In this document: positions 55,735 through 61,693 of the stretch, one piece after another
Numbering within the stretch: position 1 is the stretch's first letter
Layout of the letters: every line of letters begins with the position of its first letter
Assembly: GCA_017474515.1 (NCBI GenBank)
Contig: JAFVHN010000067.1
Location: 16,353-80,352, forward strand
Direction: 5' to 3'
Source: Prevotella sp.
GTDB taxonomy: Bacteria > Bacteroidota > Bacteroidia > Bacteroidales > Bacteroidaceae
Length of the DNA: 64,000 nt
Notes under the pieces: model-generated
Told to the model about the DNA's origin: nothing
What the model saw: the letters and a program-made list of their open reading frames with translations, nothing else
Database searches by the model: none
Translations under genes and position numbers: made by a program

Positions 55735-56595
55735 ATGAACATACTGATAACAGGTTGCAACGGCCAGCTCGGCAACGAGATGCTGTTGCTTGAAAAAGAC
55801 TACAGCCAGCACACCTGGCACAACACCGACGTGGCCGAGCTCGACATCACCAACCAGCTGGCCGTGGAACAATTCGTGGCCGAGAAGAAAATCGACGGCA
55901 TCGTGAACTGCGCCGCCTACACCGCCGTGGACAAGGCCGAGAGCGACAACGAGCGTTGCACCACCCTCAACACCGTGGCCCCGGCATACCTGGCCGCCGC
56001 CGCAGAGAAGCGCGGAGGATGGATGATACAAATCTCCACCGACTACGTGTTCAACGGCACCAAGCACACACCATACGTGGAAACCGACACCCCGTGCCCC
56101 GACAGCGTTTACGGCTCCACGAAACTCGCCGGGGAACTGGGCGTGCAAAAGTTCTGCCGGAAGGCCATGATCATCCGCACGGCATGGCTCTACTCCACCT
56201 TCGGCAACAACTTCGTTAAAACCATGATCAGGCTCGGCAAGGAGAAAGAGCAGCTCGGCGTTATCTTCGACCAGGTGGGAACGCCCACCTACGCCCGCGA
56301 CCTGGCCCGCGCCATCATGACGGCCATAGAGAAAGGCATCGTGCCCGGCGTGTATCATTTCAGCAACGAGGGCGTCATCTCGTGGTACGACTTCACCAAG
56401 GCCATTCACCGGCTGGCGGGCATCAACACCTGCCGCGTGAAACCCATTCACACGGCCGAATACCCCACCCCAGCCCACCGGCCCCACTTCAGCGTGCTCG
56501 ACAAGACGAAAATCAAGCAGACCTACGGCATTGAGATACCCTGGTGGGAGGAAAGCCTGAAGGAATGTGTGGACATGCTCTTAAACGCAGAATGA
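55735..56595 (+). CDS. rfbD: dTDP-4-dehydrorhamnose reductase
   Basis: A 286-residue short-chain dehydrogenase that reduces dTDP-4-dehydrorhamnose to dTDP-L-rhamnose for surface polysaccharides. The Rossmann glycine motif is ITGCNGQLGNE, the active-site set is STDYVFNGTK and YGSTKLAGE (Tyr, Lys), and the C-terminal PAHRPHFSVLDKTKI is typical of RmlD. The other rml genes are not in this window. The stop overlaps the DUF6078 start (ATGA). Confidence 0.95.
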   Translation: MNILITGCNGQLGNEMLLLEKDYSQHTWHNTDVAELDITNQLAVEQFVAEKKIDGIVNCAAYTAVDKAESDNERCTTLNTVAPAYLAAAAEKRGGWMIQISTDYVFNGTKHTPYVETDTPCPDSVYGSTKLAGELGVQKFCRKAMIIRTAWLYSTFGNNFVKTMIRLGKEKEQLGVIFDQVGTPTYARDLARAIMTAIEKGIVPGVYHFSNEGVISWYDFTKAIHRLAGINTCRVKPIHTAEYPTPAHRPHFSVLDKTKIKQTYGIEIPWWEESLKECVDMLLNAE

Positions 56596-57044
56596 TGGGA
56601 CAGGAACAGAAAGAGCCTGGCTATGTGAAAGTGCCCGACAGCTGGCCGCTGTGCTTCCGCAACAAATGCCCCAAGAAAGACGAGTGCCTGCACTACCTCG
56701 TGGCCACCAACATGGCCGACATGCCCGACACCGGGCCGGCGGTCTATCCCACAGTGCCCATAAGCGAGCAGGGGTGCCGACTCTTCACCTCCCAAGAACC
56801 CCGCCAGATGGCCTGGGGCTTCCGCACACTCTTCAAGGACGTGAAAAGCAAGGACGAGAAAACGCTGCGCCTGAAAATAAAGGCTTTCCTGGGCAGCCAC
56901 GCTTCCTATTACCGCTATAATGACGGGCGAAAACTGCTCACACCCGAACAGCAGGATTGGATTATCAACCTTTTCCAAGAGAGCGGATATAGCGAAAGCC
57001 TTGCCTTCGACCATTACGTCTATGCCCTCGACTTTGAACATTGA
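56592..57044 (+). CDS. DUF6078 family protein
   Basis: A 150-residue protein starting MMGQEQKEPGYVKVPDSWPL. It has a four-Cys region typical of this family (CFRNKCPKKDECLHYL, then GCRLFTS), possibly metal-binding. It continues into a helical part with RTLFKDVKSKDEKTLRLKI and a C-terminal YNDGRKLLTPEQQDWI. The family is found in Bacteroidota with unknown function. Its start overlaps rfbD's stop, so it is translationally coupled. A second in-frame ATG three bases later is an equal candidate. It is the last native-looking gene before the AT-rich insert. Confidence 0.75.
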   Translation: MMGQEQKEPGYVKVPDSWPLCFRNKCPKKDECLHYLVATNMADMPDTGPAVYPTVPISEQGCRLFTSQEPRQMAWGFRTLFKDVKSKDEKTLRLKIKAFLGSHASYYRYNDGRKLLTPEQQDWIINLFQESGYSESLAFDHYVYALDFEH

Positions 57045-57082
57045 CCCTGCAAATGCCCAAATTCCAAAAGTATCAGCTTCCC

Positions 57083-57187
57083 TGATACTGACAGTATCAC
57101 GGCGTGATACTGTCAGTATCATTGCATGATACGAGGAGTATCACCGCATGATATAAGGAGTATCAAGATATGATACTTATCACAGAA
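57083..57187. promoter_or_regulatory. Five palindromes in exact 22-bp register (TGATAC-N5-GTATCA)
   Basis: Sites start at 57083, 57105, 57127 and 57149. Each is 17 bp: TGATACTGACAGTATCA, TGATACTGTCAGTATCA, TGATACGAGGAGTATCA and TGATATAAGGAGTATCA. A half-site TGATAC lies at 57171, still in register. Spacers are 5 bp each and differ. An extra GTATCA lies at 57070-57075. The last half-site ends 25-35 bp before the start of the gene at 57212. The geometry (two helical turns between identical dyads) is that of a cooperative operator or iteron array. Confidence 0.85.
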
Positions 57188-57211
57188 CGCTGAAATCAAA
57201 GGAACAATAAT

Positions 57212-57721
57212 ATGTGTACATACAAGGACATCGACGGAATAAAGCTTCCCAATGGCCATACGGCCAACCAAGCAGCAAGCCGTGAGATAGAGCGCATCTA
57301 CACCGAGTCATGGAGACGCGGGGTTTCTGTACCTTTCTTCGACAATGCGGGAAACACCTTCCTGGCCAATCCTGATGGCAGCGAGGACAGCGTAAAACTT
57401 GACCCACTCAGCCGCACCTACCACATTCTCAAGACAACAAATAATCTACCAGAAATCAAGGCTTCATTTAATTTTGGAATGTCTACGTTGCGACACAGTC
57501 CCAAACCTATTAGGGAACAAATCTACGACAGTGAAATAGATGGGTTATTGGAGTTTCGTTATTATTTGATTGAAGACACATATCTGATGAAAGGAGAAAA
57601 AGAAAGAGTTTCTTGTTATGTTCAATTGACTAATGCAGAAATGGTATGCTTAACAATACATGATACGGTGGGGATTGACATACTAAATAGCAAGAATAAT
57701 TCAAAAAGAATATGGATTTAA
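57212..57721 (+). CDS. Hypothetical protein with mid-gene change in base composition
   Basis: A 169-residue soluble protein, MCTYKDIDGIKLPNGHTANQ. I do not recognise it. The first 75 codons (57212-57436) have the high-GC codon usage of the surrounding genes, e.g. RIYTESWRRGVSVPFFDN. From about 57440 the DNA becomes clearly AT-rich, as in the next gene. The C-terminal half is predicted beta-rich (DGLLEFRYYLIEDTYLM, then RVSCYVQLTNAEMVCLTI). It overlaps the next gene by 10 bp (57712-57721), so the two are translationally coupled. The composition switch suggests a recombination junction inside the gene. Confidence 0.65.
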   Translation: MCTYKDIDGIKLPNGHTANQAASREIERIYTESWRRGVSVPFFDNAGNTFLANPDGSEDSVKLDPLSRTYHILKTTNNLPEIKASFNFGMSTLRHSPKPIREQIYDSEIDGLLEFRYYLIEDTYLMKGEKERVSCYVQLTNAEMVCLTIHDTVGIDILNSKNNSKRIWI

Positions 57722-59799
57722 GTCAATGCATTTTTCCAATATATAATGGGGGTACAATAATCGGTCAAGGGTTTATAGCTGACGGATTCTTCATTACAGC
57801 AGCACATGTGGTAAAAAACTATCCTTCATGCTTTTTCAACTTGAATGGACAAAGAATTGAATTAGACAAAAAGGCACCGATCAACTTTATAGATGATGTT
57901 GATTACCATCATGATTCCCAAATGGAGGATGTGGTAATGTTTCAGTTTAAAGGGACAAACAGCCCATTACACCTTTCAGAATACATTCCTCAGAAGGTCG
58001 ATAAACTTGCAAGCCATTGTATGCGTGAAGTTATAGACTTAAATTCCATAAATCCTTCATCTTCATACGAATTATCAATAATACCCGCTTACCCTCTTGA
58101 GAAAGAGGAAGGTAATTATTTTTATTGTGAATGCAACAGATTTGCCGCCAGTAGTGGAAGTCCATTGCTTAAAGGAAATGAGGTAGTTGGTATTATGCAC
58201 GGTGGAGATGACAAAGGAATATGTGCATTTTTAAAAATGGGCTCAGTTCTATATAATATAGGTGATTTCTATTTTCATTATGTATACGACCCCCTTGATC
58301 ATTTGAATGTTTTTCATGCTATTCCAACTCCAGATTATAAAGAAGCTTTTAGATGGTATATGAAAGCTGCTGCAAATAATTATCCTCAAGCAGTATATCA
58401 AATTGCTTATTGTTATGAAAGAGGGAAAGGAGTAGATAAAAATTGGGAAGAAGCTATTGTTTGGTACACGAAATCTGCATCTCAAGGACATGTAGAATCT
58501 CAATTTGCTCTAGGAAATCATTTTTTTAATGGAGAAATCGTATCACAAAATTATGCAAAAGCCACATATTGGTTTCGACTCGCAGCAGAGCAACAACACA
58601 CAATGTCACTCTACAAATTAGGACTATGTTCTTATTTGGGATTAGGATTTGTTAAAAGTTACCATTATGCAGAAAAATGGTTTCACTTAGCAGTTGAAGG
58701 ATGGGAAGCTTACAAAGAATATGCTCCTCCAGAACTGCGATTAGCATACTATTATCTTGGACTATGTTGTCTTAATGATAAAACCTCTGCGCTACCACCC
58801 TATTTTGCAGTCTATTATTTTCAAAAAGCAGGTAATTTAAATGAAGCTTTATATTATTTGGGCATTTGTCATAAAAATGGTTGGGGTGTTCCGAATGATT
58901 ACAAACAAGCTTTTCTATTTTTTAAAAAAGCTTCAAATATTTATGGAGAATTTACACATAAAGCGGATTATGAAGTAGGTATGTGTTATTATAAAGGAAA
59001 AGGTGTTAATCAAGATTATAAAGAAGCTGTAAGATGGTTCAAAAAGGCTTATGATTGTGATGACGCTATATTTCAATTAGGGGTGTGTTATTATAGAGGA
59101 CAAGGAGTTGAAGGATGTTATGAAGAAGCACTTAGTCATTTTTATAAATTAGCTATTAAGGGCAATATCAGAGCACAAAGATTCGTTGGTGAACTTCAAA
59201 GAAGACTTGGTGAGTTCCAGAAAAAAAAGTACAGAATAGAAAGAGCAATTGAATGGTACAAGAAATTATTGAGTCAAGGCTACACAGACTCTCTTTGGTC
59301 AATAGGGTATTGCTTTGAAACTATGGGTAATATAGGATACCATGACAAATTCGACGAGGCTATTCATTGGTACAAAATGGCTTGGACCCAAGGAGATTTA
59401 GAAGCAATTGGGGATATAAATAATTGTTTTGAAGCGATATTCAACTTAGGTTATATAGACAAATGCAAAGAGGCTATTATTTTTTTTAAACAAGCATGGG
59501 AACATGGCATTATTGAAGCAAATAGATATATCGGTAATTGTTATAAGGCTATGTTTAATATGGGTGACAAAGAAAAAATAAAAGATGCTATCATTTGGTA
59601 TAAAAAAGCTGCTGCATTTAATGATGATAGAGCATGTAGATCTCTTAGCATCATTTATAAGAATGGAATAGGTGTTCCTGTTAACGAGCAAGAAGCAAAA
59701 AAATGGATTGAATTGGCAGATAAATACAATCCTATATCTAAAATTTTATCAGATCAGAGAAAAAAAGAAGATGGTGAATCTAATTTACATACAAAGTAA
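57712..59799 (+). CDS. Trypsin-like serine protease fused to Sel1 repeats
   Basis: A 695-residue AT-rich gene. Residues 1-190 look like a trypsin-fold protease: His32 in FFITAAHVV, Asp73 in QMEDVVMFQF and Ser148 in AASSGSPLL form a plausible triad, and GIMHGGDDKG follows. From about residue 205 to 680 there are about a dozen Sel1-like (SLR) repeats of 36 residues, e.g. AFRWYMKAAANNYPQAVYQI and AYCYERGKGVDKNWEEAIVW. There is no signal peptide, so it acts inside the cell. Protease plus Sel1/TPR arrays occur among sensor-effector proteins, but no described system is recognised here. Base composition is far below its neighbours, indicating recent transfer. Confidence 0.8.
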   Translation: MDLSQCIFPIYNGGTIIGQGFIADGFFITAAHVVKNYPSCFFNLNGQRIELDKKAPINFIDDVDYHHDSQMEDVVMFQFKGTNSPLHLSEYIPQKVDKLASHCMREVIDLNSINPSSSYELSIIPAYPLEKEEGNYFYCECNRFAASSGSPLLKGNEVVGIMHGGDDKGICAFLKMGSVLYNIGDFYFHYVYDPLDHLNVFHAIPTPDYKEAFRWYMKAAANNYPQAVYQIAYCYERGKGVDKNWEEAIVWYTKSASQGHVESQFALGNHFFNGEIVSQNYAKATYWFRLAAEQQHTMSLYKLGLCSYLGLGFVKSYHYAEKWFHLAVEGWEAYKEYAPPELRLAYYYLGLCCLNDKTSALPPYFAVYYFQKAGNLNEALYYLGICHKNGWGVPNDYKQAFLFFKKASNIYGEFTHKADYEVGMCYYKGKGVNQDYKEAVRWFKKAYDCDDAIFQLGVCYYRGQGVEGCYEEALSHFYKLAIKGNIRAQRFVGELQRRLGEFQKKKYRIERAIEWYKKLLSQGYTDSLWSIGYCFETMGNIGYHDKFDEAIHWYKMAWTQGDLEAIGDINNCFEAIFNLGYIDKCKEAIIFFKQAWEHGIIEANRYIGNCYKAMFNMGDKEKIKDAIIWYKKAAAFNDDRACRSLSIIYKNGIGVPVNEQEAKKWIELADKYNPISKILSDQRKKEDGESNLHTK

Positions 59800-59913
59800 T
59801 GTCAATGTTGAACAAAGCTAATACAGAGATAAAGTGATGGGGTATAGCATTGACACAATGGCTTAATCCTGATTTTTCAAACAGGCTGTAATGAAGGGAT
59901 GGGCTGAAACGGA

Positions 59914-59944
59914 AACTTCCAAAAAAAGGAGGTTTTTTCCTTTT
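59914..59944 (+). terminator. Possible terminator after the protease-Sel1 gene
   Basis: AACTTCC (59914-59920) can pair with GGAGGTT (59928-59934) with one wobble, followed by a T run. The 59800-60106 gap otherwise holds only AT-rich DNA and the prfC promoter. Confidence 0.5.
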
Positions 59945-60070
59945 GGGGCAAAAAATTATCACCATATATCATCTGGCACTTCCCCGAAATTCACAATTTG
60001 CGGATGCTGAATAATTTATAATTTTTCGTAAACCCAACGGTTTTCACATTCATAATTCATAATTATTGCG

Positions 60071-60078
60071 TACCTTTG
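60071..60078 (+). promoter_or_regulatory. -7 box (TACCTTTG) of prfC
   Basis: TACCTTTG 28 nt upstream of the prfC GTG start codon. Confidence 0.65.
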
Positions 60079-60106
60079 CACCCCAAACTATAACATATAT
60101 AATAAG

Positions 60107-61693
60107 GTGAACCAGGAAATAGAACGCAGGCGCACATTTGCCATCATCTCGCACCCCGACGCCGGAAAGACCACGCTGACGGAGAAATTCCTACTCTTCG
60201 GAGGACAGATTCAGGTGGCCGGCGCAGTGAAAAGCAACAAGATAAAGAAAACGGCCACCAGCGACTGGATGGACATTGAGAAGCAAAGGGGCATCTCGGT
60301 GTCAACGTCGGTGATGGAATTTGACTACACGCCCGAGGAAACGGGCGTGGAATACAAGGTGAACATCCTCGACACCCCCGGACACCAGGACTTTGCCGAA
60401 GACACCTTCCGCACGCTCACCGCCGTGGACTCGGCCATCATCGTGGTGGACGGGGCAAAGGGCGTGGAGGCCCAGACGCGAAAACTCATGAACGTGTGCC
60501 GCATGAGAAGCACACCCGTCATCATCTTCATCAACAAGATGGACCGCGAGGGCCGCGACCCCTTCGACCTGCTCGACGAGCTGGAACAGGAACTGGAAAT
60601 CAAGGTGAGGCCCCTCAGCTGGCCCATCAACCAGGGCGCAAAGTTCAAGGGCGTGTACAACATCTACGAACAGAAACTCGACCTCTTCACGCCCGACAAG
60701 CAGCGCGTGACCGAAAAAGTGGAGGTGGACATCGATAGCGACGAACTGGACAACCGCGTGGGAGAACGCGACGCCGAGAAACTGCGCGAGGACCTGGAAC
60801 TCATCGACGGCGTGTATCCCGAATTCCAGGTTGACACCTACCGGAGTGCCGAGGTGGCACCCGTGTTCTTCGGCTCGGCGCTCAACAACTTCGGCGTGCA
60901 GGAACTGCTCAACTGCTTTGTGCAGATAGCCCCCAGCCCCCGCCCCACCAAGGCCGAGGAGCGAATGGTAAGTCCCGAGGAGCCCAAGTTCACCGGCTTC
61001 ATTTTCAAGATTACGGCCAACATCGACCCCAACCACCGCTCGTGCATCGCCTTCTGCAAGGTGTGCAGCGGACGGTTCCAGCGAAACCAGCCCTACCTGC
61101 TCGTCAGGCAGGGAAAGCTGCTGCGCTTCTCGTCGCCCACCCAGTTCATGGCGCAACGAAAGAGCACCATCGAGGAGGCATGGCCGGGCGACATCGTGGG
61201 ATTGCCCGACAACAACACCTTCAAAATCGGCGACACCATCACCGAGGGCGAGCAGCTGCACTTCCGCGGACTGCCCTCCTTCTCGCCCGAACTGTTCAAA
61301 TACATCGAAAACGACGACCCCATGAAGGCCAAGCAGCTCAACAAGGGCATCGACCAGCTCATGGACGAGGGAGTGGCGCAGATGTTTGTCAACCAGTTCA
61401 ACAACCGCAAAATCATCGGTACCGTGGGCCAGCTGCAATTCGAGGTCATACAATACAGGCTCGAAAACGAATACGGCGCCAAGTGCCGGTGGGAACCCGT
61501 ACACCTCTACAAGGCTTGCTGGATTGAGGCCGACGACGAGAAGGAGCTGGAAGCATTCAAAAAGCGGAAATACCAATACATGGCGAAGGACAAGGACGGG
61601 CGCGACGTTTTCCTGGCCGATAGCAGCTATGTATTGCAAATGGCACAGCAGGACTTTGAACACATACGCTTCCACTTTACGTCGGAGTTCTGA
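60107..61693 (+). CDS. prfC: Peptide chain release factor 3
   Basis: A 528-residue translational GTPase that recycles RF1/RF2 from the ribosome. The GTP-binding motifs are [14 protein letters not shown] (P-loop), DTPGHQDF (G3) and [12 protein letters not shown] (G4). [20 protein letters not shown] is the typical RF3 start; here the codon at 60107-60109 is GTG. C-terminal domains 2 and 3 follow at normal length. It has a high-GC composition, unlike the insert just upstream. It is followed after 20 bp by a NusG-like gene. Confidence 0.96.

What the first reader, a model, noticed from the sequence alone, without database searches (positions are those of the whole stretch)
57045..59944. AT-rich two-gene insert encoding a protease-Sel1 protein between DUF6078 and prfC
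Seen: genes at 57212 and 57712 are coupled (10-bp overlap), and the DNA from about 57440 to 59900 is clearly more AT-rich than both neighbours. The second gene joins a trypsin-like domain (His32, Asp73, Ser148) to about a dozen Sel1 repeats without a signal peptide. Known: the lysE/DUF4924/rfbD/prfC order is, by recollection, common in Bacteroidales, so this looks like an insertion into conserved order. Inference: a cytoplasmic protease with a repeat sensor plus a small partner, under a dedicated operator array, could be a defence, stress or regulated-proteolysis unit. I recognise no described system with this layout.
Basis: partly seen in the sequence, partly recalled or inferred. Interest (0 to 1): 0.75.

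Follow-up and report, generated by a model that had tools for sequence, protein, structure and literature searches.

The report
Broken remnant of two-protease immune cassette
The AT-rich stretch appears to be foreign DNA, cut at both ends, that still carries one intact protease gene from what looks like a bacterial defence cassette; its likely caspase-like partner gene is broken, and the small gene in front of it is an accidental fusion of two unrelated genes.

Summary
The AT-rich block, the coupled genes and the protease-Sel1 protein are real; the reading as a two-gene unit with its own operator is not supported. Gene 1 is a chimera. Its first ~72 codons match a 93-aa protein that elsewhere precedes a Zeta-toxin-like gene; the rest matches an unrelated 136-aa family, and the switch (~57425-57430) coincides with the GC break. 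Gene 2 is an intact trypsin-like protease (His32, Asp73, Ser148) with Sel1 repeats. The protease domain is rare (3 other genomes of 299 sampled in the genus, none of them with a gene 1 match). Its one full-length relative found (G189) is followed by a gene with an invariant His-Gly...Cys pattern typical of caspase-like (clan CD) proteases. The window keeps two scraps of that gene, with an in-frame stop and a deletion. Relatives of the lost gene sit in two Hachiman operons, once directly behind a trypsin-like gene, and in a third locus behind a WG-repeat gene. Best reading: a relic of a mobile defence cassette in which a repeat-fused trypsin-like protease works with a caspase-like protease, lodged in the variable rfbD-prfC slot. 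Defence and cascade are inferred; the structure server was busy at all 12 tries, so folds are untested.

The parts
57083..57176 (.). 22-bp-period array of GTATCA/TGATAC palindromes; dispersed intergenic repeat, not specific to this locus
   Evidence: TRF; a second, longer array in the same genome on another contig
57212..57427 (+). Gene 1, N-terminal piece: first ~72 codons of a 93-aa protein that elsewhere lies upstream of a Zeta-toxin-like gene; GC 0.53
   Evidence: Matches in 11 other genus genomes; protein identity 51-77%; DNA homology stops at 57429 in the 5 longest matches, earlier in the weaker ones; Zeta-like gene or fragment beside the small gene in 11 of 11 loci; Pfam Zeta_toxin 8.1e-6 for the L049 copy, the only one of these scanned
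57428..57721 (+). Gene 1, C-terminal piece: middle of an unrelated 136-aa family (start missing, C-terminus diverged); AT-rich; joined in frame to the piece before it
   Evidence: 45% identity over 47 aa to the 136-aa protein; alignment; GC 0.33
57712..58317 (+). Gene 2, trypsin-like protease domain (His32, Asp73, Ser148)
58318..59799 (+). Gene 2, Sel1-repeat solenoid
   Evidence: Pfam Sel1 6.8e-57; 57% identity over 472 aa to L055
59796..59873 (+). First 26 codons of the lost third gene (counted from the GTG used in L055); an ATG at 59799 overlaps the stop of gene 2 (TAATG); in-frame TGA at 59835-59837
   Evidence: tblastn 69% identity, E=1.4e-6; whole-genome search E=3.8e-6 with one TGA inside; positions read
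59887..59903 (+). Second scrap of the third gene after a ~170-bp internal deletion (17 identical bases); no detectable homology beyond
   Evidence: 0 of 200 shuffles reach the score; the stretch after 59915 is matched or beaten by 107 of 200 shuffles
56595..57044 (+). DUF6078 gene, left neighbour, normal composition
   Evidence: Pfam 4.5e-38; GC3 0.72
60107..61693 (+). prfC, right neighbour
   Evidence: 81-93% protein identity where aligned nearly in full in the 29 loci

Best explanation
The block is a relic of a mobile, AT-rich defence-type cassette that landed in the variable rfbD-prfC slot and has been cut at both ends. In the intact relative (G189) the order is HTH regulator, WG-repeat protein, trypsin-like protease fused to Sel1 repeats, caspase-like protease. 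Proposed ancestral mechanism: the repeat-bearing protein responds to an infection signal or assembles; the trypsin-like protease then activates, or acts with, the caspase-like protease, which executes the response. In this genome the caspase-like gene is destroyed, so gene 2 is an orphan protease that may keep some activity but lacks that partner. Gene 1 is a by-product: the left end of the insert joined in frame to the first part of a small gene of the kind that precedes Zeta-toxin-like genes; the last ~17 of its 93 residues and any toxin gene are missing here. SHOWN: chimera, deviant composition, intact gene 2 frame, broken third gene, the Hachiman and trypsin neighbours of third-gene relatives. 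INFERRED: foreign and mobile origin, clan CD identity (motif only), proteolytic activity, order of the cascade, antiphage function, and that a Zeta-type gene once stood here.
For: Two-part origin of gene 1 with the switch at the GC break. G189 locus L055: protease-Sel1 57% identical, third gene 12 bp behind it. Remnants of that gene in the window. His86-Gly87 and Cys127 invariant in 11 of 11 aligned third-gene relatives, one of them from a Cupriavidus plasmid (two weaker Rhizobium plasmid hits, the truncated L129 copy and the weak L140 hit were not in that alignment). L123: HamA (1.2e-124), HamB (3.1e-242), trypsin-like, third gene, all co-directional; L125: GHKL ATPase, third gene, HamA (1.6e-85), HamB (E=0). 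L124: third gene 11 bp behind a WG-repeat gene. dN/dS 0.26 between gene 2 and its G189 relative, 0.17 in the protease part, with synonymous sites close to saturation. Distant protease relatives in L131 and L105 lie on DNA that looks ICE-like by eye and shares a flanking ORF.
Against: No experiment and no predicted structure; Peptidase_C13 matches only 2 of 11 third-gene members, below cut-off. PADLOC gives nothing for the three third-gene proteins scanned and only weak PtuA matches to the Sel1 part of gene 2 and its G189 relative. Only one intact protease-Sel1 plus third-gene locus was seen; the trypsin-like protein in L123 is not detectably related by BLAST to gene 2. Other relatives of the protease domain have no third gene in the stretches held (L053, L054, L111, L130-L132), and seven third-gene relatives (L126-L128, L137-L139, L141) have no recognised partner beside them. 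The Cys at the nucleophile position in G189 complicates a simple serine-protease story. dN/dS covers the whole divergence, so it does not show that the window copy is now under selection.
Confidence: 0.62

Rival explanations
1. Gene 1 and gene 2 form a working two-gene system as they stand, gene 1 being a new regulator or adaptor made by fusion and selected for.
For: Gene 1 is an open frame across the junction; the genes overlap; a related 136-aa gene overlaps a PLD-LRR_5 gene, another effector-plus-repeat protein, in L057.
Against: No genome of 299 other than the source has matches to both; the Zeta-linked part lost its conserved C-terminus and the 136-aa part its N-terminus; an in-frame join has about a one-in-three chance.
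Confidence: 0.13
2. The left junction is an assembly error: two unrelated stretches wrongly joined in this draft genome (118 contigs, 88% complete).
For: Draft genome; no second genome of this species was available and no reads could be checked.
Against: The open frame crosses the junction; the right side shows decay of the third gene and a return to prfC; the interval is variable in relatives too.
Confidence: 0.08
3. Gene 2 is a stand-alone stress or housekeeping protease with no link to defence; the neighbours are coincidence.
For: Relatives of the protease domain without the third gene nearby exist (L053, L054, L111); Sel1-repeat proteins are common in the genus sample and mostly not known for defence (recalled).
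Against: Very sparse spread: 3 other genomes of 299 in the genus, 2 others of 349 in the family sample; AT-rich in the three relatives measured; neighbours include RhuM and Zeta-toxin genes.
Confidence: 0.15

Closest known systems
Nuclease-protease pairs in Hachiman, AVAST, Lamassu and DRT systems (PMC12799240, Science 2025; passages seen)
   Same: A trypsin-like protease module acquired repeatedly by unrelated immune systems, Hachiman among them; proteolysis as the activating step
   Different: There the protease is fused to HamA, Avs1a or LmuA and its substrate is an MBL-fold pro-nuclease; here it is fused to Sel1 repeats (or is a separate protein in L123) and the neighbour is a caspase-like protein; no MBL nuclease matched among the neighbours that were scanned
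Canu caspase-nuclease loci (PMC12799240; passages seen)
   Same: Caspase-family protease in operons of variable make-up, with repeat proteins
   Different: Canu has a caspase with an Ig-like domain and a pro-nuclease; neither matched among the proteins scanned here
VMAP/iSTAND/NucA-trypsin and EACC1 conflict systems (PMC7159879, PMC8195603; passages seen)
   Same: Trypsin- and caspase-type peptidases as effectors; proposed proteolytic cascades
   Different: Those have MoxR-vWA or STAND NTPases, NucA or EAD adaptor domains; none matched among the proteins scanned here. PMC7159879 describes trypsin and caspase as mutually exclusive among the vWA-fused effectors
Trypsin-(Sel1)6 protein of Pelodictyon luteolum (PMC2605481, 2008; passages seen)
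   Same: Same domain pair, trypsin plus Sel1
   Different: Listed as a single protein with repeats of indeterminate function; no neighbour context in the passages seen

Membership tests
Hachiman | HamA (DUF1837) and HamB helicase genes in the locus | tested here: not met
   The flanking genes are rfbD, DUF6078, prfC and a NusG-like gene; HamA and HamB are present in L123 and L125, which hold relatives of the lost third gene only
Nuclease-protease pair (PMC12799240) | MBL-fold nuclease gene directly upstream of a trypsin fusion | tested here: not met
   Upstream are the chimera and DUF6078; in G189 a WG-repeat gene
Trypsin-like serine protease (S1 fold) | His-Asp-Ser triad in order | tested here: met
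   Window His32/Asp73/Ser148; Ser in 4 of 5 aligned sequences, Cys in one
Trypsin-like serine protease (S1 fold) | Double beta-barrel fold | not tested
   Structure server busy at all 12 attempts
Clan CD caspase-like protease (lost third gene) | His-Gly after one hydrophobic strand, Cys after the next | tested here: met
   Invariant in 11 of 11 aligned; the motif definition is recalled
Clan CD caspase-like protease (lost third gene) | Significant profile match or fold match | tested here: inconclusive
   Peptidase_C13 E=0.0023 at best, below cut-off; no credible PDB sequence match; hhalign against one C11 protein negative; fold not tested
Zeta toxin-antitoxin pair | Intact small gene plus Zeta-type kinase gene | tested here: not met
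   Last ~17 of 93 residues of the small protein missing and no Zeta match in the window

The most novel reading that the evidence does not exclude
[quoted passage not shown] The trypsin-then-caspase order in two loci whose trypsins are not detectably related would be a two-step proteolytic immune cascade. The window holds a decaying copy in which the first protease has outlived the second.
Probability: 0.42. Interest if true: 0.68.

Novelty: new variant of a known kind. Interest (0 to 1): 0.47.

Why it matters
If right, it adds a protease-protease pair to the nuclease-protease pairs described in 2025 and gives a short list of operons (G120, G117, G109, G189) where a bacterial trypsin-to-caspase relay can be tested. 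It also shows how a defence insert can decay: one partner goes first, and a chance fusion at the edge looks like a new gene.

Tried and rejected
Rejected: a dedicated operator array (second array elsewhere in the genome); gene 1 as a known family (nothing above cut-off in Pfam, PADLOC, NCBIfam or PHROGs); an RNA element (no Rfam match at gathering score in 56900-60200); the G189 upstream region as source of the gene 1 C-terminus (no better than shuffles); Zeta-locus sequence to the right of the insert (only ~20-bp chance-like matches). Viral-contig scans found no relatives of gene 2, of the third gene (two queries) or of the small Zeta-linked gene. The third gene had no phage-record match and plasmid matches only in one Cupriavidus and two Rhizobium records. 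The protease domain had one phage-collection match (MT836254.1, 32% identity) and no plasmid match. The first genome-contig scan found nothing with the single protein; the alignment found 4 loci, three of which are, by equal contig length, the records behind G189, G032 and G023 (titles: Prevotellaceae, Prevotella). Hhalign of the third gene against a clostripain-type protein was negative. Literature: six full-text searches listed no paper that, from its listing or the passages seen, describes a trypsin/caspase protease pair in Hachiman or beside WG-repeat genes; the library lacks most subscription journals and all bioRxiv preprints. Of the papers listed, five were seen as passages (PMC12799240, PMC7159879, PMC8195603, PMC10907252, PMC2605481), the rest as listing lines only.

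Full report
WHAT WAS CLAIMED AND WHAT IS THERE. The two ORFs, their 10-bp overlap and the AT-rich block are as described. GC3 is 0.71-0.83 in lysE, DUF4924, rfbD, DUF6078 and prfC, 0.61 in the first part of gene 1, and 0.20-0.31 in the rest of gene 1 and all of gene 2.

GENE 1 IS A CHIMERA. Searching 299 genus genomes with the whole protein gave 15 genomes besides the source, in two classes: matches ending at residue 75-88 (11 genomes) and matches covering only residues 69-125 (G006, G028, G059, G259 and, as a second match, G097). DNA homology to the first class ends at 57429 in the five longest matches and earlier in the weaker ones. In the first class the gene is a ~93-aa ORF beside a Zeta-toxin-like gene: tblastn finds at least a fragment of it in 11 of 11 loci, nearly full length in 7; in the others it is partial, at least once because the contig ends. 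The second class is a 136-aa ORF beside a PLD-LRR_5 gene in L057 (Pfam), similar-looking genes in L056 and L059 (by eye) and a HipA-like kinase gene in L058. The window protein lacks the last ~17 residues of the first and the N-terminus of the second.

GENE 2. Pfam reports Sel1 repeats; the protease assignment rests on relatives. Only 3 other genomes of 299 in the genus carry the protease domain and 2 others of 349 in a family sample. The domain is fused to Sel1 in G189 and to LRR_5 in L054, and stands nearly alone in L053 and L111. His32 and Asp73 are invariant in 5 of 5 aligned sequences; the nucleophile is Ser in 4 and Cys in G189. Gene 2 and the G189 copy differ with dN/dS 0.26, synonymous sites being near saturation.

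THE LOST THIRD GENE. In L055 the protease-Sel1 gene is preceded by HTH and WG-repeat genes and followed after 12 bp by a 264-aa ORF. The window keeps codons 1-26 of that ORF with one TGA, and a 17-base scrap beyond a ~170-bp deletion. In the window an ATG of this remnant overlaps the stop of gene 2 (TAATG). The ORF has matches in 8 other genomes of 299 in the genus. Its 4-row alignment has matches in 4 of 374 genomes of an order sample, in which the source genome itself gave none. Alignment of 11 relatives shows His86-Gly87 and Cys127 invariant. Pfam gives only sub-threshold Peptidase_C13 matches, in 2 of 11. I read this as clan CD from the motif; the fold was not tested.

NEIGHBOURS OF ITS RELATIVES. 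Take the G189 copy and its three nearest relatives in the genus (37-40% identity). L055 lies behind protease-Sel1; L123 behind a separate trypsin-like gene (Trypsin_2 2.6e-4, below cut-off) that follows HamA and HamB; L125 between a GHKL ATPase gene and HamA-HamB; L124 behind a WG-repeat gene whose C-terminus resembles that of the WG gene in L055 (by eye). More distant relatives (L126-L128, L137-L139, L141) show no recognised partner in the stretches read; L129 is a truncated copy next to lysE, behind an ORF that looks like a DNA methylase (by eye).

THE SLOT. In the 29 loci with the nearest prfC (best non-self matches among 292 other matching genomes) rfbD ends 0-186 bp before prfC in 11, 0.9 kb in 2, and 4.4, 8.4 and 8.1 kb in 3. 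In the other 13 no rfbD was found in the stretch held; 10 of these 13 were extended, some up to a contig end. One long gap holds PIN and PD-(D/E)XK genes and a DUF6078 relative, another a Type I restriction system with a YhcG-type nuclease gene, the third a clostripain-family gene among others.

THE ARRAY. The 22-bp repeat recurs as a longer array on contig 42 beside unrelated genes, so it is not evidence of a dedicated operator.

CONCLUSION. The finding is a real insertion but a relic. The interest lies in the intact relatives: a caspase-like family attached to Hachiman, WG-repeat and trypsin genes, possibly a two-step protease relay. Published systems with trypsin or caspase proteases are close in spirit, but none in the passages seen has this pair.

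Noticed in passing
57083-57176; L148:4806-4993: 22-bp palindromic GTATCA/TGATAC arrays at two intergenic places in this genome; role unknown.
   Followed up: partly
L125:3130-10373: Hachiman-type operon with a GHKL ATPase gene and a caspase-like gene in front of HamA and HamB.
   Followed up: partly
L123:74-6316: AbiL-like gene (PADLOC AbiLi 4.2e-47) upstream of HamA-HamB-trypsin-caspase: a small defence island.
   Followed up: partly
L105:6929-8542 and L131:6374-8038: Distant relatives of the protease domain on DNA that looks ICE-like (by eye), each followed by an ORF that looks like DUF1848 (by eye); the L105 record is labelled phage.
   Followed up: partly
L054:7463-9946 and L132:6450-7793: Trypsin-like genes each followed by a gene that looks like an ADP-ribosylglycohydrolase (by eye); the two are 55% identical to each other.
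   Followed up: partly
L111:6845-8579: A stand-alone relative of the protease lies 39 bp behind a Zeta-toxin gene (Pfam 2.3e-32).
   Followed up: no
L057:6868-9548: 136-aa small gene overlapping a PLD-nuclease-LRR_5 gene, a possible separate effector-plus-repeat cassette.
   Followed up: no
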